From a virus, in the IMG/VR virus record IMGVR_UViG_3300025887_000011, positions 27,808-91,807 of that record: DNA of 64,000 nt. One strand, given 5' to 3'. Positions 245 through 61,366 of the stretch are shown here, piece by piece. Below the pieces are notes generated by a model. That model was given only the letters and a program-made list of their open reading frames with translations. It had not been told where the DNA came from and ran no database searches. The translations under genes were made by a program, and so were the position numbers. Positions within the stretch are counted from its first letter, which is position 1; the number at the start of each line of letters is the position of its first letter.

Positions 245-2683
245 TTAAACTATCTTGATCTGATTGTCAACATCTTTTATTGTTATTTGTGATTTTTTAG
301 AATTTGAAATAACTATTTTAGCCAATGGTATGTGGATTTTATCGTAGATATACCTTTTTATATCTCTTGCATGCATTTTCTTATTAGTAATATCCTGAAA
401 AATGCAGTTAATTGATGATGCTTTTACGTTTATTTCAAGACCTCTATCGTGCAACTTGTTTTTAACTTTATCAACCTCATGTTTTATGATTCTTTTCATG
501 TCAGAGTCGCATAGCTCATCAAAAACCAAAACATCATTTATCCTTGCTAACAGTTCTGGTTTTAATTCTTTTTTTACGGAGTTTTTATAAGAATCCTCTT
601 CGCTCTCATCATTTTGGACAAAACCCATACTTCTTTTTTTAACTTCTTTATGACCTATATTACTAGTAAGTATTACTATAGATTTAGAAAAGTCTACTTT
701 TTCATGTTTGTTATCCTCCACGTAACCTTCATCTAGAAGATGAAGCAATATATTTAGTATTTGAGGGTCAGCTTTTTCAACCTCATCAAACAAAACGACA
801 CAGTTGGGATTATCTTTAACAAAATTAGTCAATAAGCCCCCTTCTTCGTAACCAACATAGCCAGAGTTAGAACCAATAAGTTTACTAATTCCTGTCTTAT
901 CATAAAGCTCGCTCATGTTGATTTGGAGAATAGCTTTTTCATTACCAAAAAAGTTTTTTGCTATTTTTTTAGCCGTGTAAGTTTTACCAACACTAGTAGG
1001 CCCAACAAAAAACATGCTAGCTAAAGGTTTGTTTTCCTCTGTTAAACCTGCTTTAGCGCAAGAAAGTAAGTCTGTAATAGTATCTATTGCTTTATCTTGA
1101 CCGAATACTTCTTTTTTAATCCTTGAAGAGAAAGAAGTGAAGTTTTGACTTCCAGATTTAACTTGATCAGCTGAAATTTTTGCATGTTCAGCTATAACAT
1201 CAATTATATCTTCTTTCTTTATTTTTATAGGTTTTACATCTTTGTTATTCCTGACGCCATCTAGATCATCAAGAAAGTAGTTTAGTTTTTCTTTTATTAA
1301 AGTTTCGCTGATTTCTTTTTCTGTTAAGCATTTTATTAGATCGTCGTGCTTATCCATTATATCTTTACAAGGCTTTGAGTTCTTAATTTTAACTCTAGAT
1401 CCAACTTGGTCTATTATATCAAAAGCTTTATCTGGAAACTTTTTATTACTAATTAAACTAGAAGAAAAATCAACAACACAATCTATAATGGGTTTAGTGA
1501 AAATTACGTTGTGAAATTCTTCATACTTGCTTTTGCATTTGTAAAGTATTTGTTTTGTTTCATCTTTTGTAGGCTCTTCTACTTTAACCTCAAAGAATCT
1601 ACGCTTCATCGCGCTATCCTTTTTGAATATTTTATTATATTCTTCAGTTGTTGTAGCTCCTATACATTTAATTTCTCCTCTAGCTAAATAAGGTTTCATC
1701 ATGTTCGCTGCATCTATGCTACCTTCTTGGTTGCCTCCTGCTCCAAATATAGTATGTATCTCGTCAAAAAATAAAACTGTATTAGTAGACTTTTTAGCCA
1801 TCTGTAATAGAGATTTAAACTTTTGCTCGAATTGACCTCTATACTGAGTACCAGCAAGCATTGATCCTATATTGACGCTAAGTATTTCCATACCAAACAT
1901 ATTAGATGGTATTTCTGCTTTGCATATTTTAGCAACAAGAGCTTCTACAATCGCTGTTTTTCCAACACCAGCATTACCAGTTAATATTGCATTGCTTTTA
2001 TTTTTTTTAGATATTGTTTCTATAAGCAGCGATACCTCATCGTCCCTGCCATAGACATCTGGAAGTCCGCCCTCCATATAAACACTGTTTAAATGAGTTA
2101 CAAAATCTGGAGTTTCTTCTTCTTGTTCGTTATAAGTTTCCAAAACTTGAACTTCATCAACTAAATCTTCCATTCCAAAATATGAATTGTCCTCTTCAGA
2201 CAGATCAAAATCACCATTAACAAAAATAGCTAGTTTTTCTACAAAAGATTCGTACTCTAAAATATTATCACTAATACATTCAGATACATGTACAGATGTA
2301 TTTAATAAAGCTAAGATTATATGCTCTACACCTATATAGTGTTGATCTAACTTATGAGATATTTTGTTAGCTTCTCCAATTGTATAAACTACTTCTTTAT
2401 TCCAAGGGTCAGAGTTTTTATTTACAAAAAAATGCTTGCTATCTTTTTCAGCAGATTCTTTTATAATATCTAAAGCTTCATGATGATTTATCATGAAGCC
2501 ATTAATCATTAAAAAATTGGTGATTTCTGTAGATGCATTTTTTAAACAGCCATATAAAACGTGCAAGTTAGTTATGTTTTTATGCCCAAGTTCTTTTGAA
2601 ACTGAATAAGCATCTGTATATGCTTTTTTTGCTCTAGGGGTAAGGTTAAAGTCTTTAAATATCACGTTGTTGTTTACACTCAT
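245..2683 (-). CDS. ClpA/ClpC-like AAA+ unfoldase
   Basis: An 812-residue class I Hsp100 ATPase, close to the usual ClpA/ClpC length. An N-terminal Clp_N-like helical domain covers about residues 10-150. The first AAA+ module has Walker A GNAGVGKT at 236-243 and Walker B VLFFDEIHT. The second has Walker A GPTSVGKT at 561-568 and Walker B CVVLFDEVEKAD. There is no long ClpB-type middle coiled coil. After the second module, residues 686-688 are MGF within RSMGFVQNDE, which aligns with the [L/I/V]G[F/L] loop that ClpA and ClpC use to dock on ClpP. This suggests the protein feeds host ClpP or a phage protease rather than acting as a disaggregase. It overlaps the start of the polymerase gene's stop region by 4 nt. 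Clp ATPases are uncommon in phages. Confidence 0.9.
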   Translation of the reverse strand: MSVNNNVIFKDFNLTPRAKKAYTDAYSVSKELGHKNITNLHVLYGCLKNASTEITNFLMINGFMINHHEALDIIKESAEKDSKHFFVNKNSDPWNKEVVYTIGEANKISHKLDQHYIGVEHIILALLNTSVHVSECISDNILEYESFVEKLAIFVNGDFDLSEEDNSYFGMEDLVDEVQVLETYNEQEEETPDFVTHLNSVYMEGGLPDVYGRDDEVSLLIETISKKNKSNAILTGNAGVGKTAIVEALVAKICKAEIPSNMFGMEILSVNIGSMLAGTQYRGQFEQKFKSLLQMAKKSTNTVLFFDEIHTIFGAGGNQEGSIDAANMMKPYLARGEIKCIGATTTEEYNKIFKKDSAMKRRFFEVKVEEPTKDETKQILYKCKSKYEEFHNVIFTKPIIDCVVDFSSSLISNKKFPDKAFDIIDQVGSRVKIKNSKPCKDIMDKHDDLIKCLTEKEISETLIKEKLNYFLDDLDGVRNNKDVKPIKIKKEDIIDVIAEHAKISADQVKSGSQNFTSFSSRIKKEVFGQDKAIDTITDLLSCAKAGLTEENKPLASMFFVGPTSVGKTYTAKKIAKNFFGNEKAILQINMSELYDKTGISKLIGSNSGYVGYEEGGLLTNFVKDNPNCVVLFDEVEKADPQILNILLHLLDEGYVEDNKHEKVDFSKSIVILTSNIGHKEVKKRSMGFVQNDESEEDSYKNSVKKELKPELLARINDVLVFDELCDSDMKRIIKHEVDKVKNKLHDRGLEINVKASSINCIFQDITNKKMHARDIKRYIYDKIHIPLAKIVISNSKKSQITIKDVDNQIKIV

Positions 2684-5223
2684 TTTAGTTCTGAAAGTTT
2701 CATATAAATTTTTTCTCTTAATGGACGAAGGGTGTTGATGAATATCAAATCGTCAGCGGTATCACCAACAACTATAACAACGTCACCTTTCTTCGGCAAC
2801 TTATTACCACAATTTAGGTAGTCTGTCAACCTTTCTTGTCTGTCTGAATCCATAAATAATCCAGAAACAGTTCCAAGTTCATCATTTATATCAAGCCTAG
2901 CATACTTATTTCCATTTCTACTTGTCCTCCTGCTTATATCTGCAATAATACCCACAAATTTAACAGTTCTTCTTGCTTGAGAAAGCCTGATCTCCTCAGA
3001 TGTCTGAAAAGACTCTTCATCGCCGCTACTAAATATCTCTCTTACGTTATAAGAATAACTATATCCAAGTAGTTTGGTCTCAAAAAACCAATTAGCAAAC
3101 TTTAAGTGGCTTGTGTTTTGTTCGTAAATGCTTTTATATGGATCATACTTTTTCTTAAAGGTGTTAAATCTTTTGTCTGAAAAAAGAACTCTACCATCAT
3201 CAGCGGGTGTGGTCTCAGACCTGCAATCATGAATTGTATTTAGGATATCATAGTTGAATTTAGGTCCTAGTTCTATTACATTTCTTTTTTCTCTGTCAGT
3301 TAATATATTGAATGTTTGAGCCTCAAGAACTAATCTACATCTGTCTTTATCAACAAAAGAATCAAGAAGACCAGCTTGGGCAAACGCAGACATAGTTCCT
3401 ATATTAACACCGCAATCTTTTGCCGTGATAAATACATCATACTTGTTTTTAAAAGATCCTTCTCTGAACTCAACCAGCGATTCCATAACTTTATCTGAAA
3501 CACCTTTAATTGAATTTAATCCATATCTAATGTTTTTACCTTCAATTTTGAAATCAAAACCTGACAGATTTAAATCTGGAGGAAGTAGCTTTATGTCAAA
3601 AAAAGAAAGCTCTTGAGCAATACTTGTAATCTCATCATGAGAATTTGGCTCGAATCTCGCCATTTTCAATAAACTTAAGAAGAATTCTTGTGGGTAATTA
3701 AACTTAAGGTAAACTGTAAGTGCGGCTAAATATGCATACGATATACTATGAGACTTATTAAACGAATAGTTAGCTGAGTCTTCAGCAACCTTCCATAAGA
3801 CTTCTCCTATTACTGGATCTAAATTGTTACTTTTTATTTTTTCTTCAATTTTAGCTTTCCATGCTGGCATGTCCTCAACCTTTTTCTTTCCTACTATTCT
3901 TCTAAGTTGCTCTGACTCATCAAGACTAAAGCCAACTTTAACAGCCATCTTCATTAACTGCTCTTGGTAAAGAGGAATGCCTCCTGTATAACTAAGTATA
4001 TCATCAAAAAATTCATGCACACAATTGAACTCTCCAGTTCTTACATATTCAGCATAACTATCTTTGAAATCCAAAGCCCCTGGACGAGCTATAGCGACAA
4101 CGGCAGACAATTGCTCAAGGTTTCTGGGCGCGACTTGCTTACAAACCTTGAAGTTTACTTCCGCTTCGATCTGAAACAATCCTTTAGGTTGTTGGAGACA
4201 AGCTAACGCTGCATAGATGCTTTCGTCGCTAGGGTCGATGTCACAGGCTTTGATGCCAATTTGGTTACATACGTCATGAACCACTGAAAGCGTCCTCAGT
4301 CCAAGTATATCGAACTTAACACTAAGGCTTGCTACGTCATCCATATCATAACCAGACACTAAAGCTCCTTCATTTGTTTTTTGAAGAGGCATTATGTCTG
4401 TCTGATTATAATAGCTAATCGATATTCCAGAAGGATGGACTCCAGTATTCTTTATTAAACCTTCTAGTTTTTTTGATATTTTAAATGACTTCTTGTACTT
4501 GTCAGCATAAACTCTGAAACTTTCACTTTCTTCGTAAGCTTGCGAAAGCTTTGCTACCTTCCCAAAGTGTTTTGGTATAGTGTCACTAATTTGATTAACA
4601 TCTATCTCGGATAAACCATCAACGATTTTGCCACATTCTTTAACACAAAGCTTAGAACTTAAAGTATTTAAGGTTAAAATCTTAGATGTTTTTCCTTTAT
4701 ATTTTTTTTCAATGTATTCAATAACTTCAACTCTTCTATCATAGGATATATCGTTGTCCACATCAGCCAAAAGAGAACCATCTAAATAAGTTACTCCGTT
4801 ATGCTCTATTTTTTTAGCCCTACTCTTAGAAACAAAACGCTCAAAGAAAAGCTCGTATTTAATAGGGTCAATATTGGTGACCCCAAGCAGGTAAAGAACC
4901 AAGCTTCCAGCAGCGCTACCTCTGCCAGCACCAGTTGGGATATCTTTAGATTTACAAAAGTCAAGTATGTCCCAATTCAAAAGTATATAATCGACAAAAC
5001 CAAGCTCCTCTAAAATTTCCAGTTCAGTTTCTGTTCTTTTGTAATACTCAGATCTGTTTTCTTTTTTAGTTATGCCTCTTTCTCTCAAACCCTTTCTGCA
5101 AAGCTGTTTTAGAATATCAAAACTAGAAGCGTTAGAGTCTAGATCTAAATCTTTTAAAGTTTTATCAGGAACTTCGATTTCTGGGAGCTTAACTCCTACT
5201 GGGAATGGCGTTTGATAGTTCAT
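2680..5223 (-). CDS. dnaE: DNA polymerase III alpha subunit, polymerase core (lacks PHP domain)
   Basis: An 847-residue C-family replicative polymerase corresponding to bacterial DnaE without its N-terminal PHP domain. Residues 98-107 (GAGRGSAAGS) match the nucleotide-binding GPGRGSGAGS of DnaE. D156 and D158 in ADVDND match the catalytic pair (E. coli D401/D403), and D305 in KFDILGL supplies the third carboxylate, so activity should be kept. The segment FETKLLGYSYS corresponds to the DnaE 'LGFYLSGHP' region. An OB-fold-like domain follows near 740-830 (VKFVGIIADISRR). I could not identify a clear beta-clamp peptide. The missing PHP part is encoded separately upstream, beyond an exonuclease gene. 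The three genes abut or overlap, implying coordinated expression and a reconstituted holoenzyme. The symbol refers to the family. Confidence 0.93.
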   Translation of the reverse strand: MNYQTPFPVGVKLPEIEVPDKTLKDLDLDSNASSFDILKQLCRKGLRERGITKKENRSEYYKRTETELEILEELGFVDYILLNWDILDFCKSKDIPTGAGRGSAAGSLVLYLLGVTNIDPIKYELFFERFVSKSRAKKIEHNGVTYLDGSLLADVDNDISYDRRVEVIEYIEKKYKGKTSKILTLNTLSSKLCVKECGKIVDGLSEIDVNQISDTIPKHFGKVAKLSQAYEESESFRVYADKYKKSFKISKKLEGLIKNTGVHPSGISISYYNQTDIMPLQKTNEGALVSGYDMDDVASLSVKFDILGLRTLSVVHDVCNQIGIKACDIDPSDESIYAALACLQQPKGLFQIEAEVNFKVCKQVAPRNLEQLSAVVAIARPGALDFKDSYAEYVRTGEFNCVHEFFDDILSYTGGIPLYQEQLMKMAVKVGFSLDESEQLRRIVGKKKVEDMPAWKAKIEEKIKSNNLDPVIGEVLWKVAEDSANYSFNKSHSISYAYLAALTVYLKFNYPQEFFLSLLKMARFEPNSHDEITSIAQELSFFDIKLLPPDLNLSGFDFKIEGKNIRYGLNSIKGVSDKVMESLVEFREGSFKNKYDVFITAKDCGVNIGTMSAFAQAGLLDSFVDKDRCRLVLEAQTFNILTDREKRNVIELGPKFNYDILNTIHDCRSETTPADDGRVLFSDKRFNTFKKKYDPYKSIYEQNTSHLKFANWFFETKLLGYSYSYNVREIFSSGDEESFQTSEEIRLSQARRTVKFVGIIADISRRTSRNGNKYARLDINDELGTVSGLFMDSDRQERLTDYLNCGNKLPKKGDVVIVVGDTADDLIFINTLRPLREKIYMKLSELK

Positions 5224-5852
5224 ATTTCAATTTCTAAAATTTGTCTTCTAAATATTTGGAAGTTCATTTCGATGTCATAAAGAGCATCATGTAAACGTTT
5301 CTGGTCAAAAGTAATATCATATTTTTTAAGCAGAGTCAACTGAGAAGTTTTTAAACCTCTCTCCCTAAAGTTTAGCCATTTATATTGCCAGTAAATAAAA
5401 TTATCTTTATCCACTGGGGCGTTTTTAGCTATGGCCGTAGCTATAGCTTTAGTGTCAATGATTCTCTTGATATAAGATTGATCTAGTTTTTCCCCAATAA
5501 GATTTCTCCATACATCAACCATATAAACATCAAAAGCAAGAAGGTTTTGCCCTACGATTAAATAGTCATCATCATAAAGGTATTTTGAGAACTCGCTCCA
5601 AACTTTATCTGCTGGTTCCGAATTGTTCTTGTAATACTCTTTATCAAAACCAGTTATTCTTGCAGCGTCTGGAGAAACGTTTAAGTCGTCCCAATGTATA
5701 AGTTTATCGTATTTTTTAATAACTCTGTCTCCCTCAACAACAATCCAAGCTGCTTGCCAAGGCTTAGACTTGATTAGATTCAAGCCTTCAGTTTCTGTAT
5801 CAAATATGATATATTTTTGGTTTCTTTTAAACCTAAGAAGTGATTCATTCAT
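5220..5852 (-). CDS. dnaQ: DEDD-type 3'-5' exonuclease (DnaQ/epsilon-like)
   Basis: A proofreading exonuclease of the DnaQ family, about 210 residues from the ATG used here. Exo I is IFDTETEG with D18 and E20. Exo II is in GQNLLAFD. Exo III is HDALYDIEM, with the His of the DEDDh subgroup. The open frame extends 33 nt further to a TTG at 5885, but the ATG at 5852 leaves a 2-nt gap to the preceding stop and keeps the first strand intact, so I prefer it. It lies between the PHP gene and the polymerase core and overlaps the latter by 4 nt. This order matches the domain order of Gram-positive PolC, where the exonuclease is inserted in the PHP region. It presumably proofreads for the neighbouring polymerase. 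Confidence 0.88.
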   Translation of the reverse strand: MNESLLRFKRNQKYIIFDTETEGLNLIKSKPWQAAWIVVEGDRVIKKYDKLIHWDDLNVSPDAARITGFDKEYYKNNSEPADKVWSEFSKYLYDDDYLIVGQNLLAFDVYMVDVWRNLIGEKLDQSYIKRIIDTKAIATAIAKNAPVDKDNFIYWQYKWLNFRERGLKTSQLTLLKKYDITFDQKRLHDALYDIEMNFQIFRRQILEIEI

Positions 5853-5854
5853 AA

Positions 5855-6598
5855 TTAAACTTGTTCTTTGTAAGACTCCCAGCAAAACTCATCACTACCA
5901 AAATGACTTAAGTTTGGATTAGACAATGTTGCTTGCCTACCAAAAGATCTATTACACAGAACTTTATAAGTTTGCAATGCTTCTACATCCTCTTTGTTTT
6001 TGTATTTGATTGTTTTGACTAAGCTTATAGGGTATTTGCCGTCGACAAAAGATTTAACCTTATCTTCTAGAAGAGAATCAAAAGGGAGGTTATTTCTTTC
6101 TATCCAAAACCTAGGGTTTAAGCCTTCTAAATAAGGTATGCAGTTTTTTAGAAAGAAGTTATTTTCATGTATGAAACTACCATAAAAAGGAACAACAAAA
6201 GAAAGATGTTTGTTATTCCAGAACCTTATTAGGTTATCATAATTAATTTTGCCACCACACTCAGTGAAAGCAAAAGAATAAATCTTGTTTAAAAGCTTAC
6301 AACCTTCGTCGTCTAAAGCAAAAATTACAGCCTTATGGGAGTCATCTTTATTTTCGCTTTCAGAGTTATTGCAAAGATTAATCTTTAATCCATAAGTCAA
6401 TCTAATGTCGTTTTCTTTGCAGACATGAAAAGCTTTCATGAAGCTTGTTAGATTGTCTTCAACAAGAACTAGATCTTTTAAACCTTCCTCTTTACAGATT
6501 GAAATTATTGAGTCTGGACCCTCATCCGATTCAGAGTTGTTTAAAGTTAGTATACTTTTACCTGTAGAGTAGCAAGAAGTAAATATCGGCTTGATCAT
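5855..6598 (-). CDS. detached, probably inactive PHP domain of DNA polymerase III alpha
   Basis: A 247-residue protein that follows the layout of the DnaE PHP domain. The N-terminal FTSCYSTGKS takes the place of the HSDYS metal-binding motif, LVLVEDNLTSF that of AITDHGNMFG, and DIRLTYGLKINL that of KPIIGVEAYV. The later DEGCKLLNKIYSFAF corresponds to the 'NLLKLVSLAY' helix, and ALQTYKVLCNRS to the end of the domain. The His and Asp metal ligands are replaced, so phosphoesterase activity is unlikely and a structural role in the replicase is more probable. This assignment comes from motif order, not a search. The leader contains TAATAT 6 nt before the ATG, making this a possible internal promoter for the polymerase genes. 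The stop codon is 2 nt before the exonuclease ATG. Confidence 0.72.
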   Translation of the reverse strand: MIKPIFTSCYSTGKSILTLNNSESDEGPDSIISICKEEGLKDLVLVEDNLTSFMKAFHVCKENDIRLTYGLKINLCNNSESENKDDSHKAVIFALDDEGCKLLNKIYSFAFTECGGKINYDNLIRFWNNKHLSFVVPFYGSFIHENNFFLKNCIPYLEGLNPRFWIERNNLPFDSLLEDKVKSFVDGKYPISLVKTIKYKNKEDVEALQTYKVLCNRSFGRQATLSNPNLSHFGSDEFCWESYKEQV

Positions 6599-26467: not shown

Positions 26468-29400
26468 TTAATTTCCATCTGTAGAAGGATAAAGCCTCCA
26501 AGGTAATACTGTCAAACCCTGGAATGTTGGACCGTAATTTCCTGTGTATTCATCTGTTACGTATAAATTGCCAGTAGGGCCATTTAAAAAAGCATTAGCT
26601 CCTATGTTGGGAGAATCAATATCAAGAAAAACATTCCTTATTTTTGAGCAGTTTTCATAAGCAGAAGCACCTATTGACATGTTTAATTCAAAATAATTAG
26701 CAAAAATAATGTCTCCAGTTATATTAGAACAACCTTTAAATGCATTATCTCCTATTTTAGATAAAGATGGGATATCTTCATAACTAAGTATTTGAGATAT
26801 ACCGCTACAGTTTCTGAACGCTGCGTTATCTATTACTTCTAAACTAGGACCAAGAGCTAAAAAAGGTCCAACTTGAGAACAACCATCAAAAGCTTGATTT
26901 GCTATTCCAGTGGTGCCAAAACCAAAGGCTAATGATCCAGATAAATTATCTAAACCAGCAAAAGCTCTGGTGCCAATAGAAATCAGACCTTCAGAAAGCA
27001 AACGTAATTGTCCTGAAAATCCAGAACATTCATAAAAAGATTCTTTTCCTATTCTTTGGATGTTTGGTGGTAAAGTTAGTCCTCCATTAAAACCAGTACA
27101 TCTTGAAAAACTATAATCATCTAAATATAGTAGGGTTCCTGGTAGTTCTAGCTTTCCAGTAAAATTATAATCATAGAATCCAGAAACACCAACCCCAGTA
27201 ACTCCTTCTTTAAAAGATAGAGTGCTTTGGCTGTCAAAGTTATATGTTTTATAGAATTCAAAAGAACTTTTTTGCACCGAAGACGAAGGACAGGAAGCTA
27301 ATACAAGGCCAGTAAAATAAGATTGGTCAAATACATTTATCCCGACATCTGTAGATGGGCTCATTTGCAAAAACCCACTAAAAGGACTATCTTGAAAAGC
27401 TGAATTTTCGATCTTTTGGACAGAACAACCTATTTTAGCGCTTCCCGATAATCCAGTACAACCTTTAAACGCAGCAAAACCAATGCCAGTGACTGAATTA
27501 GGAATGTTAATAGATCCTGTTAAGTTATATCCAGAAAAAGCATATTCATGCAAACCCGAAGCATTATTATTAATTATTAAGTTTAGATTAATATCTTTAA
27601 ACTCTTCATAGAATCCAGACTTAATCTCTGTTAATGATGAAGCTGTAAATAATCTTCCACCTTCAATATTTATTCCTGAAAAATTTGTTCCATAAAAAAC
27701 ATTTCTTCCTATTGATGTTCCGTCTTCTATATTCAATAACCCTGAAAGGCCAGAACAACCAGAAAATGCGAAGTTTCCTATTTTATTTAAATTGTCGCTA
27801 AATGTCAATCCTCCAGTTAAAGGCCAATTATCAAAAGATCTTGAATTTATGTTTTTAACGCTTTCAGGGAAACTAACAGAACTAGAGTTGCTATTTGATA
27901 AATAGTAGTCAAATTCATTGTTGCTTATGTTTTTAACCCCTTGAGACACTTTAAGGTTTGTAAAATCACATCCAGTAAAAGCTAATGGATGTATCAAACC
28001 GCTTCCAGATTGAGGCTCTAAACCTCCCTCCCATATTGCTGGGAAAGTTGTTAAAGTTTTTGCGTTTGAACAATTTCTAAAAGCTCCGCTTTCTATAGCG
28101 GAATCTCCAGAACCATAAATGAATTGAGCTCTTGATAAAGATATTTCTGAGAAACCACTACAATCATCAAATGCTAAACTTCTTATGCCAGTTAAGGATG
28201 TAGGTAAATCTAATTTACCAGTAAATTGCATTCCTGCAAAAGATCTTTTGTTAATTTGTTCGACCTTTGAAGGAGCTTTGAATGTTAAAATACTTTGCTC
28301 TGCATAATTAGAAGTTGTTTTTGTGTGTATATCTAACCCGTACCAACCGTATCCGAAATAACTAGTATTTGCATTCCGACCTGTAACAGAGTAAATAACA
28401 TTTGGAACTTCTAAGTTTTTAAAATCGTTGTTTTTAAAAGAGTCAGGACTATTAATAAATCTACTGGACTGACCATCCCTGCTTAAATATTGATATGAAG
28501 GCGGAACAGTTAATTTCCCATCAAAAGCATTTAAATCAAAAGCTAGATTAGAAATGGTTGAAATCCCTGTAGAGTTTAATTCTAGATCTCCAGTTAAATT
28601 ACAAAATCGAAACCCCTGACTCCCTACTGACTGCAGATTTTTGCTAAAAAATATTTTTTTCTGTTGTAAACTAGCGCCTCCAAATACACTTGTCGAAGCA
28701 GTCTTTAATTTAGGAAAGTGAAAATCATTTTGAATATCGTAACCTTTAATAAAACCACCTCTGAATGCAAGAGATCCAAGATTTTCCAGGTTGTTATCGA
28801 CAGGAAAAGTAAATTTCCCTTTTGGTGATTTATCTTGGTTATAATCCATTCCAAAAGCACTACTCCCAATGCTGCGTACACTCGCTGGTAGATAAAAGTC
28901 TCCAGTCATATAAGATAGATAGAACCTCGAGGTTATACTTGAGGTCGCGTAAAAAGCCAGATCCTCTATAGTTACAAGACCTTCATTAAGTTTTAAAGTA
29001 TGAATTCCTGTTGTCGGGCTGGCATTACTTGTAGATCTGAAAGACTGGTTAAAAGCATAAGGTTCTATACCAGTTATATTGGATGGTATTTCTAAAACTC
29101 CAGTTATGTAGTTATTAGCAAATCCATAAGTTGGGATTATTTGTAAACCAGTTCCAATTTCTAGGCTTCTAATATTATTATCTCTAAACCCACTTCCCCC
29201 CATAAATACTAATGAATCTGGTATTTTAAGTTCTCCAGTTATAGCCCATCTATAACATGATGCATTAGCTACATTTTTAACGCCCTCTTCTATATTTACA
29301 TATGGGAACGGCTTAGTAGTTTGTGATAGGCGTCTTCTAAACCATTGATAGTCATTTGTTCCATCAAAAGTTAACGTACAAGATTTTACTGTTAAACCAG

Positions 29401-32302
29401 TCAAACTAGAAGGGGGGAAAGAAGAATTTACTCCAGTATCAGCTATAACTCCGCTACCAGCAGACACCTTAGTAAAATTACAACCAGTAAAAGCTAAAGG
29501 GCCTATTTCAAGATCTCCGCAATTAAGTTCTATTTCTTCATCAAATGAAGAACACCCATTGAAAGCATTGTCTCCTATAACACTAACTGACTCTGGAATT
29601 ATCAACTTCCCCGTTAAACTAGAGCAATTCTGGAATGTGTTTTTTCCTATTCCTAGCAAACCGCTTTGAAAATTTAAATTTTTAAATCCAGTTGAATTAT
29701 AAAAAGCAAAATCACCAACCCCAGTTATTTGTTGCCCTATGTTTATAGAACCTGTCAAGCTACTGCAATTATAAAATGTTTTTTCTTTTATTACGTCTAT
29801 TGAATTACTTATAGAAAGTTGGCCGTCAAACCCATCACAATCCTGAAAAACACCAACCCCTAAACCAGTTATTTTAGACGTAATGTTTAAATCTCCTTCG
29901 AAGCTGTTGCATCCAGAAAAAGCATGATTACCAATTAAGCTAACGTTGTTTAAGTTTAAATTACCAGTAAAACTATAACCATCAAAAGCGTTATCTGCTA
30001 TGGTTTTAGTATCATCGCCTAAAGTTAAAGACGCAAATGAAGTTTTAAAAGCGTCAAATTGATTGTCATTTATTGTTTTTACTTTGCTTATGATTATATT
30101 TTTAAAATTATTATTACCAAAAGCATTTGTAGCAATAGTCTTATCTCCAATAATTTGTATTGAAGAGTCAAATCCAGAGCAATCAAAAAAAGCAGCGTCT
30201 TCTATTTCTTTTATGTAATCTGGAAATATAAGATCTCCAGAAAAACCAGCACAACCAGAGAAAACACCTGATTGTAATTTAGATAAACTTGTGCTAAATT
30301 TTAAACCAGTTCCTAAACTTTCACAACCAGCAAAAGAATAGCTTCCTAAACCAGTTATGCTATTAGGCAGTATTAAATTTCCAGTTATATTAGAGCATTC
30401 GTAAAAAGCTTTATTATCAATAATGCTAACTTCTTCATCAAAGAAAATAAAACCATTTATACCAGAGTTATTATTAAAAGCAGACTTGCCTATTCTGTTT
30501 AAGAAAACAGGAAAAACTAAAGATCCAGTGAATTGATAATTGTCGAATGCGTTATCATTTATGCCGCTAAGATAAGGTGACATAGTTAACAACAGCTTTG
30601 AATCAGAAAAATAATCATAACCACCGTCATCTACATAATCAATGAGGTCGTCAAATATTAATTCATTAAATTGACAACCAGAAAAAGCGTTTAAACCAAT
30701 ACTTGTTATTGTACTGTCTGATATTTTTATAGATTTCTTAAAATTAGAACAATTACCAAAAGCTTCTTGTCCTATATTTAAAACATTTCTTGGGATTTCG
30801 AGATCTCCATTTAAGCCAGTGCAATTAAAAAAAGCTTCTCTAGCTATTCCAGATATAGACTCACCAATATAAAGACCACCATCGAATCCAGAACAATTAT
30901 AAAAAGTTTCTGTTTTTACATCTTTAAGTAGATCATGTAGATAAAGATCTCCTTTAAAACCTGCACAATCTTTAAAAGCTGACCTAGATATATTTTCTGT
31001 AAAGTCTGGAATTCTTAAAGCTCCAGTTATATTGGAGCAACCAGAAAAAGCTTCTCTACCTATTGAGTTTGCTAAGGTTCCTATTCTTAATCTTGCAGCG
31101 TTTAAGTCACCGCTACTCCAATAAGAAGGTATATTTGCTTCGGTTGATCTTAACACTGCTCCATTAGAATCGTATACAGTAGAATCGAAAAATGGCGTAG
31201 TCCAAAAGTTAAAATCTTTCTTGTTGTTTATCGGAAATGAAAACGAAGATGAATATGTCATACTTTCGTTTTCTTTCATCGAATAAGAAAAACTCTCTAA
31301 TTGTAAGTTTGGAAACCTCAATATTGAAGCATAGTCAGATTCTAAATTCTCAGCTACTAAAGAGAAAGAATAGCGATCTTCGTCAGCCAGTAAACCAGAT
31401 ATAAATCCAGTTTGGTATTTTGATACGTTCGACTCAATATTTAAAGTGCCCTCTAAAGGAAATTTTATTTTTCTATCACGAATGTAGTCAGAACCTAAGC
31501 CTTCTAAGTTTACCCTGTTTATAGGTATAGTCATAGACATGCTTGTCACCCTATGGTCAGCACCATAAAGATCTTGGCCACCAATTTGGATATTAGCCAA
31601 CACCAAACTCAAACCGCAACTAGTAGCGTGGATATCTGGCTTTGTGAAGTCTAAATATCTTTCAGAAGCTTCGTCATAACCAGAAAGTTTTGTGCCAGAT
31701 ACTAGCAGTCTACCAACTCCATTGTCATTTCCAGATATTAGATTTATAGCTGGAGACTTTATATTACCAGTATAAATATCGCCCTGCATATTAGAGCATT
31801 TATAACTTGTTCTTACTTTTGGTATAGAACCTATCTCGAACGACAAGTTATAAGAGTTTAAGTATGAGTTCCCAAATGAAAATATTTCTCCGCTATTAGG
31901 ATTCTGTAAAGCATTAGAGTCAAAATAATCTATAGCATCAGACCCTTCATCTGGATGGTTATAGAAATAAAAATTATAAGACTTGTCTAATAATTGCTCT
32001 AAAAAACCAGTTGGCTTATAGTTTACACCAGTAACTATACCCAAGCCCATTAAGTTTTCATTAGGCATAAATGGATTATATAGATAATCTATAGTAAGAT
32101 CTATTTCTGGGTGTTTGTTGATGCTATTAAGTTGAAAATCTTTTGATCCAACAGCTCCAGCCTTTTCTCTTTGCATGGATACAGAAAAAGACGAGTTAGT
32201 AACCCCGCCAAACAAAACTCCAGACTCATCGTAATCTTTGAACGATGGAGACTCTCCTATTATTACTAAACTATTATTACTATTTAATCTTATTCTAGAC
32301 AT
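26468..32302 (-). CDS. giant LRR (BspA-type) tail protein with tail-tube-like N-terminal domain
   Basis: A 1944-residue structural protein. Residues 1 to about 390 share block order with the tail-tube-like proteins of this phage: SFSVSMQREKAGAVGSKDF near the start, GNSYLNSYNLSFEIGSIPKV, VTSMSMTIPINRVNLEGLG, and FSYSMKENESMTYSSSFSFP. From about residue 410 to 1930 a long array of about 23-residue leucine-rich repeats of the BspA/LRR_5 kind follows, with unit pattern 'I.G.AF.~C~~~~G.L.IP.~...I'. There is no signal peptide, so it is not an ordinary secreted LRR protein. As the last large gene after tape measure and minor tail proteins, it is most likely a tail fibre or tip protein that binds the host; the N-terminal domain would dock it to the tail. 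Confidence 0.82.
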   Translation of the reverse strand: MSRIRLNSNNSLVIIGESPSFKDYDESGVLFGGVTNSSFSVSMQREKAGAVGSKDFQLNSINKHPEIDLTIDYLYNPFMPNENLMGLGIVTGVNYKPTGFLEQLLDKSYNFYFYNHPDEGSDAIDYFDSNALQNPNSGEIFSFGNSYLNSYNLSFEIGSIPKVRTSYKCSNMQGDIYTGNIKSPAINLISGNDNGVGRLLVSGTKLSGYDEASERYLDFTKPDIHATSCGLSLVLANIQIGGQDLYGADHRVTSMSMTIPINRVNLEGLGSDYIRDRKIKFPLEGTLNIESNVSKYQTGFISGLLADEDRYSFSLVAENLESDYASILRFPNLQLESFSYSMKENESMTYSSSFSFPINNKKDFNFWTTPFFDSTVYDSNGAVLRSTEANIPSYWSSGDLNAARLRIGTLANSIGREAFSGCSNITGALRIPDFTENISRSAFKDCAGFKGDLYLHDLLKDVKTETFYNCSGFDGGLYIGESISGIAREAFFNCTGLNGDLEIPRNVLNIGQEAFGNCSNFKKSIKISDSTITSIGLNAFSGCQFNELIFDDLIDYVDDGGYDYFSDSKLLLTMSPYLSGINDNAFDNYQFTGSLVFPVFLNRIGKSAFNNNSGINGFIFFDEEVSIIDNKAFYECSNITGNLILPNSITGLGSYSFAGCESLGTGLKFSTSLSKLQSGVFSGCAGFSGDLIFPDYIKEIEDAAFFDCSGFDSSIQIIGDKTIATNAFGNNNFKNIIISKVKTINDNQFDAFKTSFASLTLGDDTKTIADNAFDGYSFTGNLNLNNVSLIGNHAFSGCNSFEGDLNITSKITGLGVGVFQDCDGFDGQLSISNSIDVIKEKTFYNCSSLTGSINIGQQITGVGDFAFYNSTGFKNLNFQSGLLGIGKNTFQNCSSLTGKLIIPESVSVIGDNAFNGCSSFDEEIELNCGDLEIGPLAFTGCNFTKVSAGSGVIADTGVNSSFPPSSLTGLTVKSCTLTFDGTNDYQWFRRRLSQTTKPFPYVNIEEGVKNVANASCYRWAITGELKIPDSLVFMGGSGFRDNNIRSLEIGTGLQIIPTYGFANNYITGVLEIPSNITGIEPYAFNQSFRSTSNASPTTGIHTLKLNEGLVTIEDLAFYATSSITSRFYLSYMTGDFYLPASVRSIGSSAFGMDYNQDKSPKGKFTFPVDNNLENLGSLAFRGGFIKGYDIQNDFHFPKLKTASTSVFGGASLQQKKIFFSKNLQSVGSQGFRFCNLTGDLELNSTGISTISNLAFDLNAFDGKLTVPPSYQYLSRDGQSSRFINSPDSFKNNDFKNLEVPNVIYSVTGRNANTSYFGYGWYGLDIHTKTTSNYAEQSILTFKAPSKVEQINKRSFAGMQFTGKLDLPTSLTGIRSLAFDDCSGFSEISLSRAQFIYGSGDSAIESGAFRNCSNAKTLTTFPAIWEGGLEPQSGSGLIHPLAFTGCDFTNLKVSQGVKNISNNEFDYYLSNSNSSSVSFPESVKNINSRSFDNWPLTGGLTFSDNLNKIGNFAFSGCSGLSGLLNIEDGTSIGRNVFYGTNFSGINIEGGRLFTASSLTEIKSGFYEEFKDINLNLIINNNASGLHEYAFSGYNLTGSINIPNSVTGIGFAAFKGCTGLSGSAKIGCSVQKIENSAFQDSPFSGFLQMSPSTDVGINVFDQSYFTGLVLASCPSSSVQKSSFEFYKTYNFDSQSTLSFKEGVTGVGVSGFYDYNFTGKLELPGTLLYLDDYSFSRCTGFNGGLTLPPNIQRIGKESFYECSGFSGQLRLLSEGLISIGTRAFAGLDNLSGSLAFGFGTTGIANQAFDGCSQVGPFLALGPSLEVIDNAAFRNCSGISQILSYEDIPSLSKIGDNAFKGCSNITGDIIFANYFELNMSIGASAYENCSKIRNVFLDIDSPNIGANAFLNGPTGNLYVTDEYTGNYGPTFQGLTVLPWRLYPSTDGN

Positions 32303-33336: not shown

Positions 33337-34130
33337 TACCCGTGTCCTACGTAATTAAGATCAAGTTTTAAACTTCCGTCTTGAGAAATCCTCAAGGTTT
33401 CATTTATCAAACTTGCGTTTGGTATGTTTACACTTTGTAGTTCTTTTCCGTCTCTACCATTAACAATTATAGATAAGTTTTTATTTTCCTTTAATTCTAA
33501 AAAATTATAAGAATTTTGTAAAAAAGCATCATCAACGTCTATAGAAGCATTAGCTGTGTAAAATATTGGGGCTATTGTTTCTACAGCAAAGGGGTCTTTT
33601 TGACCTATTCCATAGATTGGTTTTCTGTTTATATTTATAGCGTAGTTAAACCCCACAACTCTATTTGTTGTTGAATTATCACATGTTATAGCTATAGATC
33701 CTTGGCTTGGAATATCTATTTTTGGATGTCTTCTTACAGTTCTTTTTCCACCTGCATCAACACCGCTTTTCATTTCATCTGTTATTATAAAATTAGAAGC
33801 AGATTTTGGAACAGCTCCGACTGCACAACTTAAAGAATAATTATTTAGGTAACCTTTTTCAAATCCATAATAAGAATCATTATAAAAAAGACTTGCAGCT
33901 ATCGGTTCAGATCCAGTATAATTTAAGACTGGGTCGTTATATATTAAATTTCTATTTAAAGTTAAGCCTTGTTGTATAGGCCCACTGTTTACTGAGAAAC
34001 CTCTTCTGCTGCCAAGTATATTCTTTACATCTGATGAAGATTTATAAGAAAACTCTAAAGAATTTATACCAGACAGTTCATAATTATCTGTGAAAAGCCT
34101 AGCTTCGTGATTAAATATTCCGTTAAACAT
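33336..34130 (-). CDS. tail-tube/distal-tail-like protein
   Basis: A 264-residue protein just downstream of the tape measure gene, the usual location of the distal tail protein. The shared block order with the tube proteins is visible: LEFSYKSSSDVKNILGSRRG, GYLNNYSLSCAVGAVPKSAS, FNYAININRKPIYGIGQKDP with AIAxxIxRxPIxxxG-like spacing, and FLELKENKNLSIIVNG then NETLRISQDGSLKLDLNYVG. It therefore probably has the tail-tube fold and could be the hub that joins tube and tip. It overlaps both neighbours by 1 nt, showing tight coupling within the tail operon. Confidence 0.68.
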   Translation of the reverse strand: MFNGIFNHEARLFTDNYELSGINSLEFSYKSSSDVKNILGSRRGFSVNSGPIQQGLTLNRNLIYNDPVLNYTGSEPIAASLFYNDSYYGFEKGYLNNYSLSCAVGAVPKSASNFIITDEMKSGVDAGGKRTVRRHPKIDIPSQGSIAITCDNSTTNRVVGFNYAININRKPIYGIGQKDPFAVETIAPIFYTANASIDVDDAFLQNSYNFLELKENKNLSIIVNGRDGKELQSVNIPNASLINETLRISQDGSLKLDLNYVGHG

Positions 34131-37100
34131 TATACTCCTCTTCTAAGTGTTCCTCCAAGTCTCTTCTCTTCATTTATAACCTTAAGAACCTGATCTCTTA
34201 TAAGTTTTGCAATTTTAATGTTGTCATCTTCTTCTTGAGATCCAGTACTTTTTTCTTCGCTATTAGAACCATCACTATTCACCGTTATGGTTATCGCCCC
34301 AGTTGATTCTTTAGTAGCTTTTATTAACTCGTCTAATCTATCTATAACTTCTTCTTGGTTTTCTGGTTCTACTGAAGAAGAATCTCCAGCGTTAAGTTTT
34401 TCTAAGGAAGATTGACCTAATCGACTTGCCGCAGAACTATTTACCACAAACTCTCCACCAGAAAGCATTGTTGGCACTGTATCAATTCCAGGAGCATCTT
34501 GAACTCTTCCTCCAGTAGCAAACCCTTTAGGAGGAAGAAGTCCTCCATTTCCCGATGCCGCAAGACTAAAGAAGTAATCCTGAATCTTTTGGTATAAACT
34601 TTTTTCTATGTCTGAGTTCCTAGAAGGCAAAGTAGATTCAAGAGCTGCGCCTTCACCATAAACAGGGCTTGAAACTTTACCTGCGCTATATTTTCTTATT
34701 GAGTTATCGCTTGAAGCTTTTAAAGCATCTATACTAAGCTGGTCAACTTGAGAGGCTTTTATCGAAGACAATATAGCTTGATTTCTGCTTGTTGATAAAG
34801 TTTTATCTCCAGATATTTGAGATCCTCTTCCGTCTATAATAGCTTGTACAGCTGGGTTTTTGGCAGTAAATCCATATTTTCCAGAATTTGATGTAAACTC
34901 TCCAGATTTGAAAAAGTCTATAGCAGCTGGAGATGTTGAATTTTTTAAGAAATAATTACCTAACCCCTGCTGATTAACAGTCCCTCTATTATTAAAAAAG
35001 TTTGTTAAGCCTCCGTATGTTTGTTCTCCACCGCCATTTAAAGTTCCTCCACCAAAAGCTCCTCTTACTCCAGTCCAAAATTTACTACCTGCAGATAGTG
35101 TTTCCCCAGAGGCAGCTGCTTGTTGTGTAGCTCCTGATATTGCATTCTGAGCACCTGTTGCTGCAACATTTACACCATAGCTAATTACTGCACTTGCTAC
35201 TGTGGATATTATAGCTTTTTTGAATTCTTCTTTTGCTCTTTTATTTTCTGCATCTATCTGAGCTCTTAAATCGTCATCTCTAATAGCTAAATCAAAAGCT
35301 TGTCTTTTTGCGTCTTGAGTAGCTAGTTGAATAGGAGTTCCTGCTTTTCTTCCAAAGTTTGTTAACCTAAGGCTTTCTGGTTCAAGATCAATAAATGCTG
35401 CATTACTTTTTTGATCGCCGCCAATAAAATCAGTAGCTCCATTTGTAAACCCTTGAGTCGCAAAGTTCCTCAAAGCTTCCGCTCCGCTTATTTTTCCAGA
35501 TCCTCTTAATCCTGGAGCGAAATAATTTCCAGTTCCTGTTTGAGTTGGTATTTTATCACGATCAACAATACCACCTTCAGCAAATTGACCGATGTTTCCA
35601 CTGTTTATATCATCAAGAAGTTTCGTGCCGTATTTTTCAACAGACTTTTTCTTAACGACATACTCTCCAGACATTAACAAAGCTGGAACATCGTCCTTGC
35701 TTCCAGAACCTCCGCTCACCGAACCTCCAGAGCTATACCCACCTGCACTGAAAGCATTTACGAAAGCATTTCCTTGGCCTCCTCCTCCTCCTATAATATT
35801 GGCTATTCCACCAATTGCATTCTTTAAATTTGTTCTTGTAAGCTCTTTCAAGAAGCTTGTGGCAGCATCTCTTAATGTTTCTTTTAAATCTTTTCCTTCT
35901 ACAATGGCCGCTTCTATTCCATTTACAATTGCATCTGTAAAATCAACAGCTCCTTTTACTAGCGTATTATTAATATTTTGTACAGCTTCTGGTCCGTCTA
36001 CAGAAAGTTCATCTAAGATTCTTTCTGTAACTTTTTCTGGTTTATTCTTCTGAGCTGCGATTTGTTTTCTCAACTCTTGCAACTCATCTCGACCTTCCTT
36101 AGTTAAAGTCCCCTTACTTTCTTGTTCTGTAAGAGCTTTCGACTTTTGCAACAAATCAAATATTAATAGTCTATCATCGTATTCTCTTTGAAGCTTTCTT
36201 CTTTGAGCCGTGCTTGTTGACTCTATTAAGTCTAATTCAAGTTGATAGTAAGCTCCTAACCTTTGTTGATCAAGCTGTGTTTGTATATCAACATCACTAA
36301 GCCCCTCGTTTCTTCTTGTGATATCTTCTGTCTCGGCCGCTCCAGAAAATTCGGTCCTAGGTTGTATTGGGGTTTGGGTTTCAGAACCGAAACCAAAGAA
36401 GCTTTTTATTTTATTGAAAGCTTTTTTAATAAAGTCTAAGATACCAGAGAAACTTTTTAATGATTCTATTACTGTATTGGTTTCTGTATTTTGGTTTCGT
36501 TGAGCTTCTAATGCTGTTCTCTGGGTCTCTAGTTTTTCTTTTTCTACTTTTGCTGCTTTTTTCTGATCGTCTGTAGATTCAGTATCATTTATAACAGAAT
36601 CTAATTGAGTTATTCTTGTGGTTAAGTTTTCAGAAGCTACATTCAAGCGAGAAAAACCGTCAACAACGCCGCTTACAAAAGAACCTATACTACTAAATTG
36701 TCTAGACGACTGTGTTATAGGGTCTTGTCTATCAGGGCTTGAGATTCCCGCTTGTGTATTCTGAGGATTAGCGTTAGGTCCGAATGTAGAAAGAATCTGT
36801 TTTGTTTTTTCCAACTCTATTCTTAATTTTTCTTGAAGTACGATTTCTTCCTGCCTAAGCTTGTTTAATAACTTTAATCTTTCCCCTTTTTCTGATTCTG
36901 CCCCAATAATATCTACGCCATCACCAGCATTTGGGTTTGCCCTAAACACTTCGCCGCTTCTTAAGTTTGTTTCCGCAGGAGTTGGGAAATCTCCAAGCCT
37001 TCCAGCATCAAAATTATTTCTAAAATTGGAAGCACTGCTATCTTCTGTCACTGATTCAATAGCCGAGCTAAAACCCTGCACTGCTACCGCTGACTGAGCT

Positions 37101-40100
37101 AGCCTTTGACTTAAATCTGCTAAATCTTTTTTAGCTTTAACTTCATTGCCTCCTTCAGCCAAGAAAAGTTTTTGTCTTGCTTCTTCAATAGTAATAGTCC
37201 CAGCTATAGCTTTTTTATATAATTCTACAGTAGCGTTTAACGCTTCAAACTCTTTTGCATTTTCTGATATTTTTTTATTTATAGATTCTAAATCTATAGT
37301 TCTTGTAGTAGCGCCAAACTGAGAATTATCAACTTTTCGGCTTGAAATCTTATTTCTTTCTTTTATCAAGTCAAGCCCTCGTCCTCTAATTTTTTCTAAT
37401 TCTAGTGCTGGAGTTTGAGCTTCTTGTTTTAAAAGTTTTCTTTTTTCTTTTTCTTCTGGGCTATTCTCTTTAGCTTCTGTTTCTGCTTTCTTAAGATACT
37501 CAAGTAATTTATTTATAGCCGTACTAAATGTAGAGGCGTTATTTGTTTGTTGGTTTAGTATTTCTCTATTCTTGTTTTCGGTATCTTCAAGGAATTTTTG
37601 CCTAGCTGCAGTTTGCTTAGTTAATTCATTATTAAGCAATTCAGACAAAGCTTGTATTTCCCCTGGTCCTTGTCTTACTTGACCATCTGCATCAGGACGA
37701 GTGAGATTGTTGATGGCCTCTCTTATTCCTTTTTCGTTTAATATCCCAGTATCTCTAGCTGTTTGTAAAAAATCTTTTTGTATTTTTTCTAAACGGTCAA
37801 ATCTTTTTATATTTATATTGTTTTCTTCTTTTCTTCTTGCGTTTGTTGACTTAACGACATCCAAAACAGAAGGGGCTTGCCCTCCTCCAAAAATCCTAGA
37901 TGTGGATTTTTCGCTTCTGTCTATAGCTATGTTTGAAGCTTCTAACCTTGATTTGGTTATTTGGTTTTGTGTGTTAAGGCTTTGTTGAAGTATTCTTTCT
38001 TCTTCTTTGATTATATCTACCCTGTCTTTATATACAGCATTCTGAGCTTGAGCGACTTCTTCGGCAGCTCTTTGAATTTGCAATGTTTTTTGTTGCTGCT
38101 CTATTTGAGCTTTTAAATTATCAACAATTTCTTTTGATAATGTTTCTTGTCCAGTAAATGCAAGTAGAGCGGCTTCTAAAGGTTTAGCAAAATCATCAGA
38201 AAATCCAGTCTCCGAAAGATCTAGTTTGGCAATTTCGTCTATAGTAGCCTTAATAACAAGAAACCTATCCTGACCTATCTTCTTATCTTGATCACCCTCT
38301 AATAACTCTTTTACTTTTTTATTATCAAGTATAGTTTTTGAAATTAAAGCGTTTATTTCTTGAGCGCCTTCTCTTTGAGCTTTTATAGACCTTAATTGCA
38401 AATCAAGTTCTAGCTGTTTGTTTTTAGATGTGTTTAAAGATATTTTTTGTAACTCTAGTTCAGCTTCTTTTCTTGTTTTTACGCTAGATATTATTTTGCT
38501 TTCAGCCAAAGCACCTTTGATCTGGATATTGAGTATTTCGGCTCTAAGCTTTACAATATCTTCTAGTTCTTCTTTTTCTGCTTTGACTATATCAAAAACT
38601 TGCTTGCTTAAATCTCTTTGCTGTTTAACAAGCTCTTTTATCTTCTTGTCGTCACCAGTAAGCTGGGCTTTAAGTAGGTCAGCGCTAGCAGCTTCTAGCT
38701 TCTTTATTTCTTCTGAAGCAACGCCACCTTTTACTAAATCGACAAGTTCTTTTACTTGAGATGCATCTGTTAAATCTGCTGAAGTAAGTTTAACATCATC
38801 AACTAAGTTGAGAATACCTCTTGTAAAGTTTTCTTGGCTTGTCTCTACAAGACTTTTTATAGCACCATCATCTATATCTAAGTTTGATGTATTTATGCCA
38901 GATATATCTAGAGCTCCAGAACCTCTTTGCGCTTTTCTAAATAGCTCTGCTCTAAGCTTTTCAGGGTCTTCTATGTTTTTTAGTTTCGGGTCTTTTAACT
39001 CAGCTTCTCTTCTGCTTACTTGAGTTAAAATTTGAGTACCAGTTTGGGCAAAAGTGTTTTGGCCACCTTGGCCTTTAAGTAGATTTTGGTCTAAACTGTC
39101 GCCAAACTTTTCTAAGCTTTTAGCGGCTTTTTCAGCTGGGCTATCAATGACCCCAAGTTTTTCTAGAAGTTTTGTGCCTAATTTAGTAAAAAATCCTCCT
39201 AAATCAAAACCAAATAATTTAAGCGCCGAGTTGACCGCTTGAAAGCCAACTACAAGAGGCCCTATAAGAGGAACAAGTCTAGAAAACAAACCTACTGTTT
39301 TTCCTACAAAAGGTCCAGCTTTACCAATTAAGGAAAAAACTTTTGCAATTCCTTTTGAAGATGTTTTTGTAAAAGCATCTGCACCCGATCCTCTTCTTAA
39401 TGAAGCTGCAGCGCCTTTTCTTCCAAATAGTTCTACGGTTTTCCCAAAGCTTTTTCCCTGTTCATTTCCAAACCTTTTGATAAAATCTGTGCTTGATTCT
39501 CCCTTTTCTTTACCTAGAGATTTTTGATCTAACCCTAGAGACTGTATTCCTTGAATGAGAAGAACAGTTCTTGCCGCACCAGCTCCAGCTTCAGCGAGTT
39601 GTTTACCAGCGCCTTCAGCAGTTTCGGCGAAAGCTTGAAGTGTGCTCGCTGTTGTGAATGCTGCACTGCCAAGAACTAAAAACGATTGTAAGCTTTTTTC
39701 TTGAGTTTTTTCTGCTGCACCTTCACCGCCTCTTTGAACTAAACGTTCTTTTGCTGCTGTTTTTAAAGATTCTTTATTGGCTTTCCCTCCAGCTTTACTA
39801 AGGTTTTTTATTTCTGGACTGCTTCCATTAAGATTTTTTACTAACTCATCTATTTTTTCGTTAGCTTCTTTTTGGGTTATTACTTTATCTTTAGTATCTT
39901 TTACTATAACATCTAAAGACTTATTGAAATCTCCCAGTGTTCCTTTTAAGGAATCAAGTTCTTTTTGTATTCCTTGAGCTTCAATACCCCCACCTTGACC
40001 TCTTGATTCCAGTGTTGATTGAGCTTGAATTAATTCTAATGGATTTCTGGTTCCAGTTTTAGCTGCAAAATTTGGTATGTAACCTAAAGATGCGTTTCTT

Positions 40101-61050: not shown

Positions 61051-61366
61051 CAATAAAGTCTTCTAAGTTACTAGAACCCTTTCTTCTCGATGCCGCTTGC
61101 TGAGAACTATCTCCAGCTAAAGACCCAAAAGTGAATACGTTGTCGTTATACTGCTCTAAATCAACTTCAAGCCTTTTGATGTCTGGAACTTCATCTATAG
61201 AAGTCTCATCTTCGGCCAAAGATTCCTCATTTTTAGGAATTTTATTAGATTTCTTGTCAACAAGAGACGCTCCTCCAAATTTGCTTCCACAACCAGAGCA
61301 AAATTTTGGTTTGGAATAAGAATATTCTATCTTATTTCCGCATTCAGTACAAAAAACGTGGTTCAT
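61034..61366 (-). CDS. zinc-ribbon protein
   Basis: A 110-residue protein. The N-terminus has a clean zinc ribbon: C6, C9, C23 and C26 (CTEC...CSGC). The rest is acidic and disordered-like, with DIKRLEVDLEQYNDNVFTFG and a basic tail. It overlaps the sigma-like gene and is transcribed just before it, so a role in transcription control, as an anti-sigma, adaptor or co-activator, is possible. The promoter TTGAAA-16-TATATA places the transcript start at or very near the ATG. Confidence 0.7.
   Translation of the reverse strand: MNHVFCTECGNKIEYSYSKPKFCSGCGSKFGGASLVDKKSNKIPKNEESLAEDETSIDEVPDIKRLEVDLEQYNDNVFTFGSLAGDSSQQAASRRKGSSNLEDFIDAKRR

What the first reader, a model, noticed from the sequence alone, without database searches (positions are those of the whole stretch)
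2680..6598. DNA polymerase III split into three genes in the order PHP, exonuclease, polymerase core
Seen: the polymerase core keeps the Gly-rich loop and Asp156/158/305 but has no PHP domain. A separate gene matches the PHP layout with lost metal ligands, and a DEDDh exonuclease lies between them, all within 4 nt of each other or less. Known: DnaE carries an N-terminal PHP, and PolC has the exonuclease inserted in its PHP region. Inference: this is a split form with PolC-like order, either an intermediate or a convergent arrangement.
Basis: partly seen in the sequence, partly recalled or inferred. Interest (0 to 1): 0.78.

Follow-up and report, generated by a model that had tools for sequence, protein, structure and literature searches.

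The report
Phage DNA polymerase III in three pieces
A widespread group of uncultured phages makes its bacterial-type DNA polymerase III from three separate genes (a catalytically dead PHP domain, a proofreading exonuclease and the polymerase core), although this PHP domain is otherwise described as always part of the polymerase chain, so what it does for the polymerase can now be tested piece by piece.

Summary
On the minus strand, 6598-5855 encodes a 247-aa PHP protein, 5852-5220 a 210-aa DEDDh exonuclease and 5223-2680 an 847-aa polymerase core. A confident AlphaFold model of the 247-aa protein matches only Pol III alpha PHP domains at the top. All nine metal-ligand positions are non-canonical, yet the gene is under purifying selection.

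It is not a frameshift: in all 69 viral loci where all three genes could be scored, and in 19 further loci including deeper branches, they are separate genes in the same order. In 22 of the 69, extra DNA, mostly carrying an unrelated gene, separates two of them.

The core is DnaE-type, not PolC, and the PHP is uninterrupted, so the "PolC-like intermediate" reading is not supported. The evidence makes it a fused DnaE cut near the PHP-palm boundary, once in this clade.

A second phage clade was cut independently nearby; its PHP keeps all nine ligands and its records show no DEDDh exonuclease.

Best reading: a three-subunit replicase in which an inactive PHP is a detached structural subunit and proofreading is done by the exonuclease. 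Assembly is inferred, not shown.

The parts
5855..6598 (-). Stand-alone PHP-domain protein, 247 aa, inactive metal site
   Evidence: Pfam PF02811 at cut-off; phrog_405 62-294; AF2 pLDDT 86.9, pTM 0.86; top 17 PDB fold hits all DnaE-type Pol III alpha; hhalign to fused PHPs 96%, E 2.4e-9; 0/9 metal ligands
5220..5852 (-). DEDDh 3'-5' exonuclease, 210 aa, no epsilon-type C-terminal tail
   Evidence: PF00929 1.4e-14 over residues 15-201 of 210; D18, E20, D108, H188, D193 invariant in 34 homologues
2680..5223 (-). DnaE-type Pol III alpha core without PHP: palm, thumb, fingers, HhH, OB; 847 aa
   Evidence: DNA_pol3_alpha 3.5e-60, finger 3e-29, HHH_6 1.7e-17; TIGR00594 458.5 bits, over its cut-off of 434 without a PHP; AF2 pLDDT 86.1 and best PDB match Taq Pol III 7.3e-39
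5853..5857 (-). PHP|exonuclease junction: stop codon TAA, 2 nt, then ATG
   Evidence: sequence; extra DNA here in 10 of 69 related loci
5220..5223 (-). exonuclease|core junction: 4-nt overlap ATGA
   Evidence: sequence; extra DNA here in 12 of 69 related loci

Best explanation
The three genes encode the phage's own replicative polymerase as a three-subunit assembly. The core catalyses synthesis. The PHP protein, a pseudo-enzyme whose metal site has been replaced largely by conserved basic residues, docks on the core where the fused domain normally sits and acts as a structural subunit. The DEDDh exonuclease proofreads in place of the lost PHP nuclease. The form arose once, by cutting a fused DnaE near the PHP-palm boundary and placing an exonuclease gene in the cut. 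Shown: domain identities, separate genes, conserved order, lost PHP ligands, intact exonuclease and polymerase motifs, purifying selection, single clade. Inferred: physical assembly, the scaffold role, that this exonuclease proofreads for this polymerase.
For: PHP fold, with DnaE-type PHP domains as the only strong PDB matches and whole-domain profile match. PHP under purifying selection although catalytically dead: median dN/dS about 0.07 against 0.07 for the exonuclease and 0.04 for the core. Same order in 69/69 loci with all three genes plus 19 others. Inserted genes between them (FkbM methyltransferase, mannose-6-phosphate isomerase-type cupin, SET, LAGLIDADG) without loss of any of the three. 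Conserved basic residues K7, K14, R72, K89 (family consensus) at ligand positions match the reported rule that PHP metals are replaced by positive side chains (PMC3666897). That paper also reports that PHP integrity controls Pol III stability and activity, and that PHP metal loss goes with a separate exonuclease. No PolB or beta clamp was found in the record, so this is the only replicative polymerase detected.
Against: No complex was modelled or measured. The exonuclease has no room for the C-terminal tail by which E. coli epsilon binds the PHP, so the coupling must differ from E. coli. About 20 residues joining PHP to palm in fused enzymes seem to be missing (phrog_405 positions 294-324). 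PHP is the least conserved of the three (mean column identity 52% against 62% and 71%).
Confidence: 0.72

Rival explanations
1. The detached PHP protein no longer docks as the fused domain does. It has become a separate replication or host-takeover factor (for example a loader of the exonuclease, or a factor acting on host Pol III), and the core works alone.
For: Lower conservation than the core (against 34); linker to the palm seems missing; extra DNA separates it from the other two genes in 10 loci.
Against: Never lost and never moved out of the module in the 69 loci scored or in the deeper branches. All C-family polymerases studied keep a PHP even when it is inactive, and destabilising it reduces E. 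coli Pol III activity (PMC3666897).
Confidence: 0.15
2. The exonuclease is not the proofreader of this polymerase but an independent DEDDh nuclease that sits in the operon.
For: No epsilon-like tail; such nucleases are common; its best PHROG is a phage 'DNA polymerase exonuclease subunit', a name only.
Against: Always between PHP and core; active-site residues invariant; the contrasting clade with an intact PHP shows no DEDDh exonuclease in its records.
Confidence: 0.08
3. A PolC-like evolutionary intermediate, or convergence on PolC.
For: Gene order PHP, exonuclease, polymerase resembles PolC's domain order; best NCBIfam hit of the exonuclease is the PolC model, 42.9 bits, just above DnaQ-type models.
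Against: PHP uninterrupted; core is DnaE by profile, fold and C-terminal domain order; no N-terminal OB; fused DnaEs surround the clade.
Confidence: 0.03
4. One polypeptide after all: sequencing frameshift, programmed frameshift or split-intein trans-splicing.
For: Tight junctions in the window.
Against: Separate in every contig examined; unrelated genes inserted at both junctions. PHP homology runs to residue 245 of 247 and core homology starts by residue 11, leaving no room for intein halves. The exonuclease would interrupt any fusion.
Confidence: 0.02

Closest known systems
DnaE1-type DNA polymerase III alpha plus DnaQ epsilon (E. coli Pol III core)
   Same: Same functional parts: inactive PHP, separate DEDDh exonuclease, DnaE palm/thumb/fingers/HhH/OB.
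   Different: PHP is a separate protein; all nine PHP ligand positions changed (five in E. coli, PMC3666897); exonuclease lacks the PHP-binding tail; the core ends just after the OB domain, with no room for the small C-terminal domain.
PolC
   Same: Order PHP, exonuclease, polymerase along the DNA.
   Different: PolC is one chain with the exonuclease inside the PHP and the OB at the N-terminus (PMC3919608); here DnaE-type core and uninterrupted PHP.
Split Pol III alpha of group 2.2 jumbo phages (PMC7824862)
   Same: A phage Pol III alpha divided into separate proteins.
   Different: That one is cut within the catalytic module, its genes are far apart, it has no PHP and sits beside a family B polymerase. 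Here the catalytic module is whole, the PHP is the cut-off part and no PolB was found in the record.
Mid-polymerase splits in Rossellomorea phage phiT1 and Bacillus phage KLEB27-3
   Same: DnaE gene in two ORFs, in KLEB27-3 with an HNH endonuclease gene between.
   Different: Cut is inside the polymerase domains; PHP stays fused to the N-terminal half in phiT1.
Second PHP-split phage clade found here (L275, L276, L304, L311)
   Same: PHP and polymerase core encoded by separate ORFs.
   Different: Independent origin; cut lies further into the palm side; PHP keeps all nine metal ligands where complete; no DEDDh exonuclease in the records.

Membership tests
DnaE-type C-family DNA polymerase | palm/thumb/fingers with Gly-Ser loop and three catalytic Asp | tested here: met
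   GRGSAAG, D156, D158, D305 invariant in 35 sequences
DnaE-type C-family DNA polymerase | PHP domain in the same polypeptide, N-terminal to the palm | tested here: not met
   PHP is a separate gene
DnaE-type C-family DNA polymerase | HhH then OB domain C-terminal to the fingers | tested here: met
   HHH_6 1.7e-17 at 544-628; weak OB hit 0.0037 at 754-820; fold alignment runs through the OB region
DnaE-type C-family DNA polymerase | family model score | tested here: met
   TIGR00594 458.5 bits, cut-off 434.35
PolC | exonuclease inserted inside the PHP domain | tested here: not met
   PHP continuous, 225 aligned columns
PolC | PolC family model score | tested here: not met
   core about 32 bits against cut-offs of 873 and 1043
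Pol III epsilon (DnaQ) | DEDDh active site | tested here: met
Pol III epsilon (DnaQ) | C-terminal tail that binds the alpha PHP | tested here: not met
   exonuclease domain ends at residue 201 of 210; defined as in PMC3666897
Metal-dependent PHP phosphoesterase | nine metal ligands HHDHEH(C/H)DH | tested here: not met
   0/9 in 47 sequences, by hhalign-guided mapping
PHP fold | structural match to Pol III PHP domain | tested here: met
   top 17 PDB hits E 1e-10 to 1e-7, TMq 0.62-0.77
Split-intein DnaE (cyanobacterial type) | intein halves at the break | tested here: not met
   no room at the PHP C-terminus or core N-terminus
Three-subunit Pol III core | physical complex of the three proteins | not testable with these tools
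   only single-chain structure prediction available

The most novel reading that the evidence does not exclude
A C-family replicase in which the PHP is a free subunit and the exonuclease joins the polymerase by a contact unlike E. coli's epsilon tail: a new quaternary design of the bacterial-type replicase, reached by domain detachment at least twice in phages, once with a dead PHP plus DEDDh exonuclease and once with an apparently intact PHP nuclease and no DEDDh exonuclease found.
Probability: 0.45. Interest if true: 0.75.

Novelty: new variant of a known kind. Interest (0 to 1): 0.62.

Why it matters
Published surveys state that C-family polymerases carry the PHP domain universally, and that PHP, palm, thumb and fingers lie in one polypeptide (PMC12926913, PMC3666897); why an inactive PHP is kept is an open question. 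Here nature has done the experiment of detaching it, twice, once with the nuclease site dead and a DEDDh exonuclease beside it and once with the site intact. Core, PHP and exonuclease can be mixed one by one, which makes the scaffold and proofreading roles of the PHP directly testable without engineering a cut. The clade is not rare: one pattern scan found at least 566 viral stretches encoding the stand-alone PHP, with no match to it in 50,697 phage records by tblastn.

Tried and rejected
Sequencing frameshift: rejected by 69/69 separate loci and by inserted genes. Split intein: no room at the ends. PolC membership: rejected by profile, fold and domain order. Direct sequence search of the PHP against PDB found nothing significant and tblastn of PHP and exonuclease against phage records found nothing; the fold and profile methods were needed. 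Host assignment: related contigs sit in MAGs named Flavobacteriaceae, Lokiarchaeota and Woesebacteria, mutually inconsistent and probably binning errors, so no host is claimed. A beta clamp in the record: none, so the processivity factor is unknown. A tree including PolC was not built because no PolC sequence was fetched.

Full report
Check of the observation. Three minus-strand ORFs lie head to tail at 6598-5855 (247 aa), 5852-5220 (210 aa) and 5223-2680 (847 aa). The first two are separated by 2 nt, the last two overlap by 4 nt. The first is a PHP protein (Pfam PHP 1e-5, exactly at the gathering score). The second is an RNase_T/DEDDh exonuclease (1.4e-14). The third is a Pol III alpha without PHP (DNA_pol3_alpha 3.5e-60, fingers 3e-29, HhH 1.7e-17). 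One fused phage DnaE family, phrog_405, is matched by the PHP protein at profile positions 62-294 and by the core from 324 on. The cut therefore falls near the PHP-palm boundary, and roughly 20 residues of the joining segment seem to be missing.

Is the 247-residue protein really a PHP? By plain sequence against PDB it finds nothing significant. An AlphaFold2 model from 47 aligned homologues has pLDDT 86.9 and pTM 0.86. Its 17 best PDB matches are all DnaE-type Pol III alpha subunits, E 1e-10 to 1e-7, TM-score up to 0.77 of the query length. A profile comparison with fused phage and bacterial PHP domains gives 96% probability, E 2.4e-9, over 225 columns, i.e. nearly the whole domain.

Metal site. 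The nine ligands (consensus H H D/H H E H C/H D/N H; PMC3666897) were mapped with the profile alignment. In 47 sequences they read L/V/I, K, K/R, D, R/K, K/R, Y, S/T, Y: none canonical, four conserved basic. The window's own protein has T, not K, at the second position. The mapping is least certain at position 7. Barros et al. (PMC3666897) describe replacement of the metal by positive side chains in inactive Pol III PHPs, with five changes in E. coli. The gene is nevertheless under purifying selection: median dN/dS about 0.07 in the pairs where dS was measurable, against 0.07 (exonuclease) and 0.04 (core) (most pairs are saturated at synonymous sites, so these are rough).

The exonuclease and core. 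D18, E20, D108, H188 and D193 of the exonuclease are invariant in 34 homologues. The domain fills residues 15-201 of 210, so the C-terminal tail by which E. coli epsilon binds the PHP has no room. The core keeps the GRGSAAG loop and D156, D158, D305 in all 35 homologues. It is DnaE and not PolC: NCBIfam 460 against 32 bits; fold matches 7e-39 for Taq DnaE against 4e-15 for Geobacillus PolC.

Conservation of the arrangement. A viral-contig scan gave 80 relatives at 57-100% identity. In all 69 with all three genes scorable they are separate ORFs in the order PHP, exonuclease, core. The other loci are cut by contig ends. In 22 of 69, extra DNA of 130-1170 nt separates PHP and exonuclease (10) or exonuclease and core (12). 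It usually carries an ORF unrelated to the polymerase: a SET protein, a mannose-6-phosphate isomerase-type cupin, an FkbM methyltransferase and unknown proteins. Nineteen further loci show the same order: four in MAG contigs, eight at 48-100% identity to the divergent member L087, and seven of a deeper branch related to L325. In that branch one virus has a LAGLIDADG gene between exonuclease and core. Some of these loci are near copies of one another, so the counts are not independent events.

Origin. Sampled bacterial DnaEs and most phage DnaEs have PHP and polymerase in one ORF. In a tree of 68 cores the window's clade is one side of a branch with SH-aLRT 100 and a long stem (0.94). Its sister is unsure: a single long-branched phage row. 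PolC was not in the tree.

A second split. L275, L276, L304 and L311 also encode PHP and core separately. They form their own clade (100), sister to a fused phage enzyme, and the tree needs two changes between fused and split. Their cut lies further into the palm side: the PHP protein keeps the joining helices and some 30-40 residues more. Where the PHP is complete (L275, L304, L311) all nine ligands are kept, read by eye from the motifs, and their records (49-65 kb, possibly partial) show no DEDDh exonuclease by Pfam. The two clades thus repeat, in detached form, the rule of PMC3666897 that PHP metal loss goes with a separate exonuclease.

Mechanism. The most likely reading is a three-subunit Pol III core: core for synthesis, PHP as detached structural subunit, exonuclease for proofreading. 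No family B polymerase and no beta clamp were found in the 91.8-kb record, so it is the only replicative polymerase detected there. A helicase, a primase and a UvsX/RecA-like recombinase lie upstream in the same gene run. Physical assembly is inferred. How the exonuclease is held without the epsilon tail is open; the conserved N-terminal LLRF of the exonuclease is a candidate contact, a guess only.

Known work. PMC3666897 and PMC12926913 describe the PHP as universal in C-family polymerases and part of the chain. PMC7824862 reports a split Pol III alpha in jumbo phages, but cut within the catalytic module, without PHP, and beside a family B polymerase. Mid-polymerase splits exist in phages phiT1 and KLEB27-3. 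In the papers searched (openly licensed PMC papers only) nothing found describes a stand-alone PHP gene of a C-family polymerase.

Noticed in passing
L275, L276, L304, L311 (viral contigs): Second, independent phage clade with PHP and Pol III core in separate ORFs, intact PHP ligands where the PHP is complete and no DEDDh exonuclease in the records; L276 and L304 carry an unknown ORF of about 140 codons in the gap.
   Followed up: partly
L304, L311, L277 (core ORFs of 1144-1532 aa): Very long polymerase ORFs with an internal insert of several hundred residues in the core, probably inteins; not identified.
   Followed up: no
L330:4984-5802: LAGLIDADG-type ORF sitting between exonuclease and core in one deep member: a possible clue that homing endonucleases target this junction.
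   Followed up: partly
window 245-2683, minus: ClpA/B-like two-domain AAA+ protein (phrog_4871) overlapping the polymerase core by 4 nt, in the replication gene run.
   Followed up: no
window 34130-43189 and 26468-32302, minus: Giant ORFs of 3019 and 1944 aa, not examined.
   Followed up: no
L243:2222-6494 (record positions outside the window): Four ORFs of BspA-type leucine-rich repeats next to a sulfotransferase gene, in the same record as a lambda-type tail protein L gene.
   Followed up: no
window 60352-61053, minus: Weak sigma-70 region 2 match (20.8 bits, below the cut-off of 24): possible phage sigma factor.
   Followed up: no
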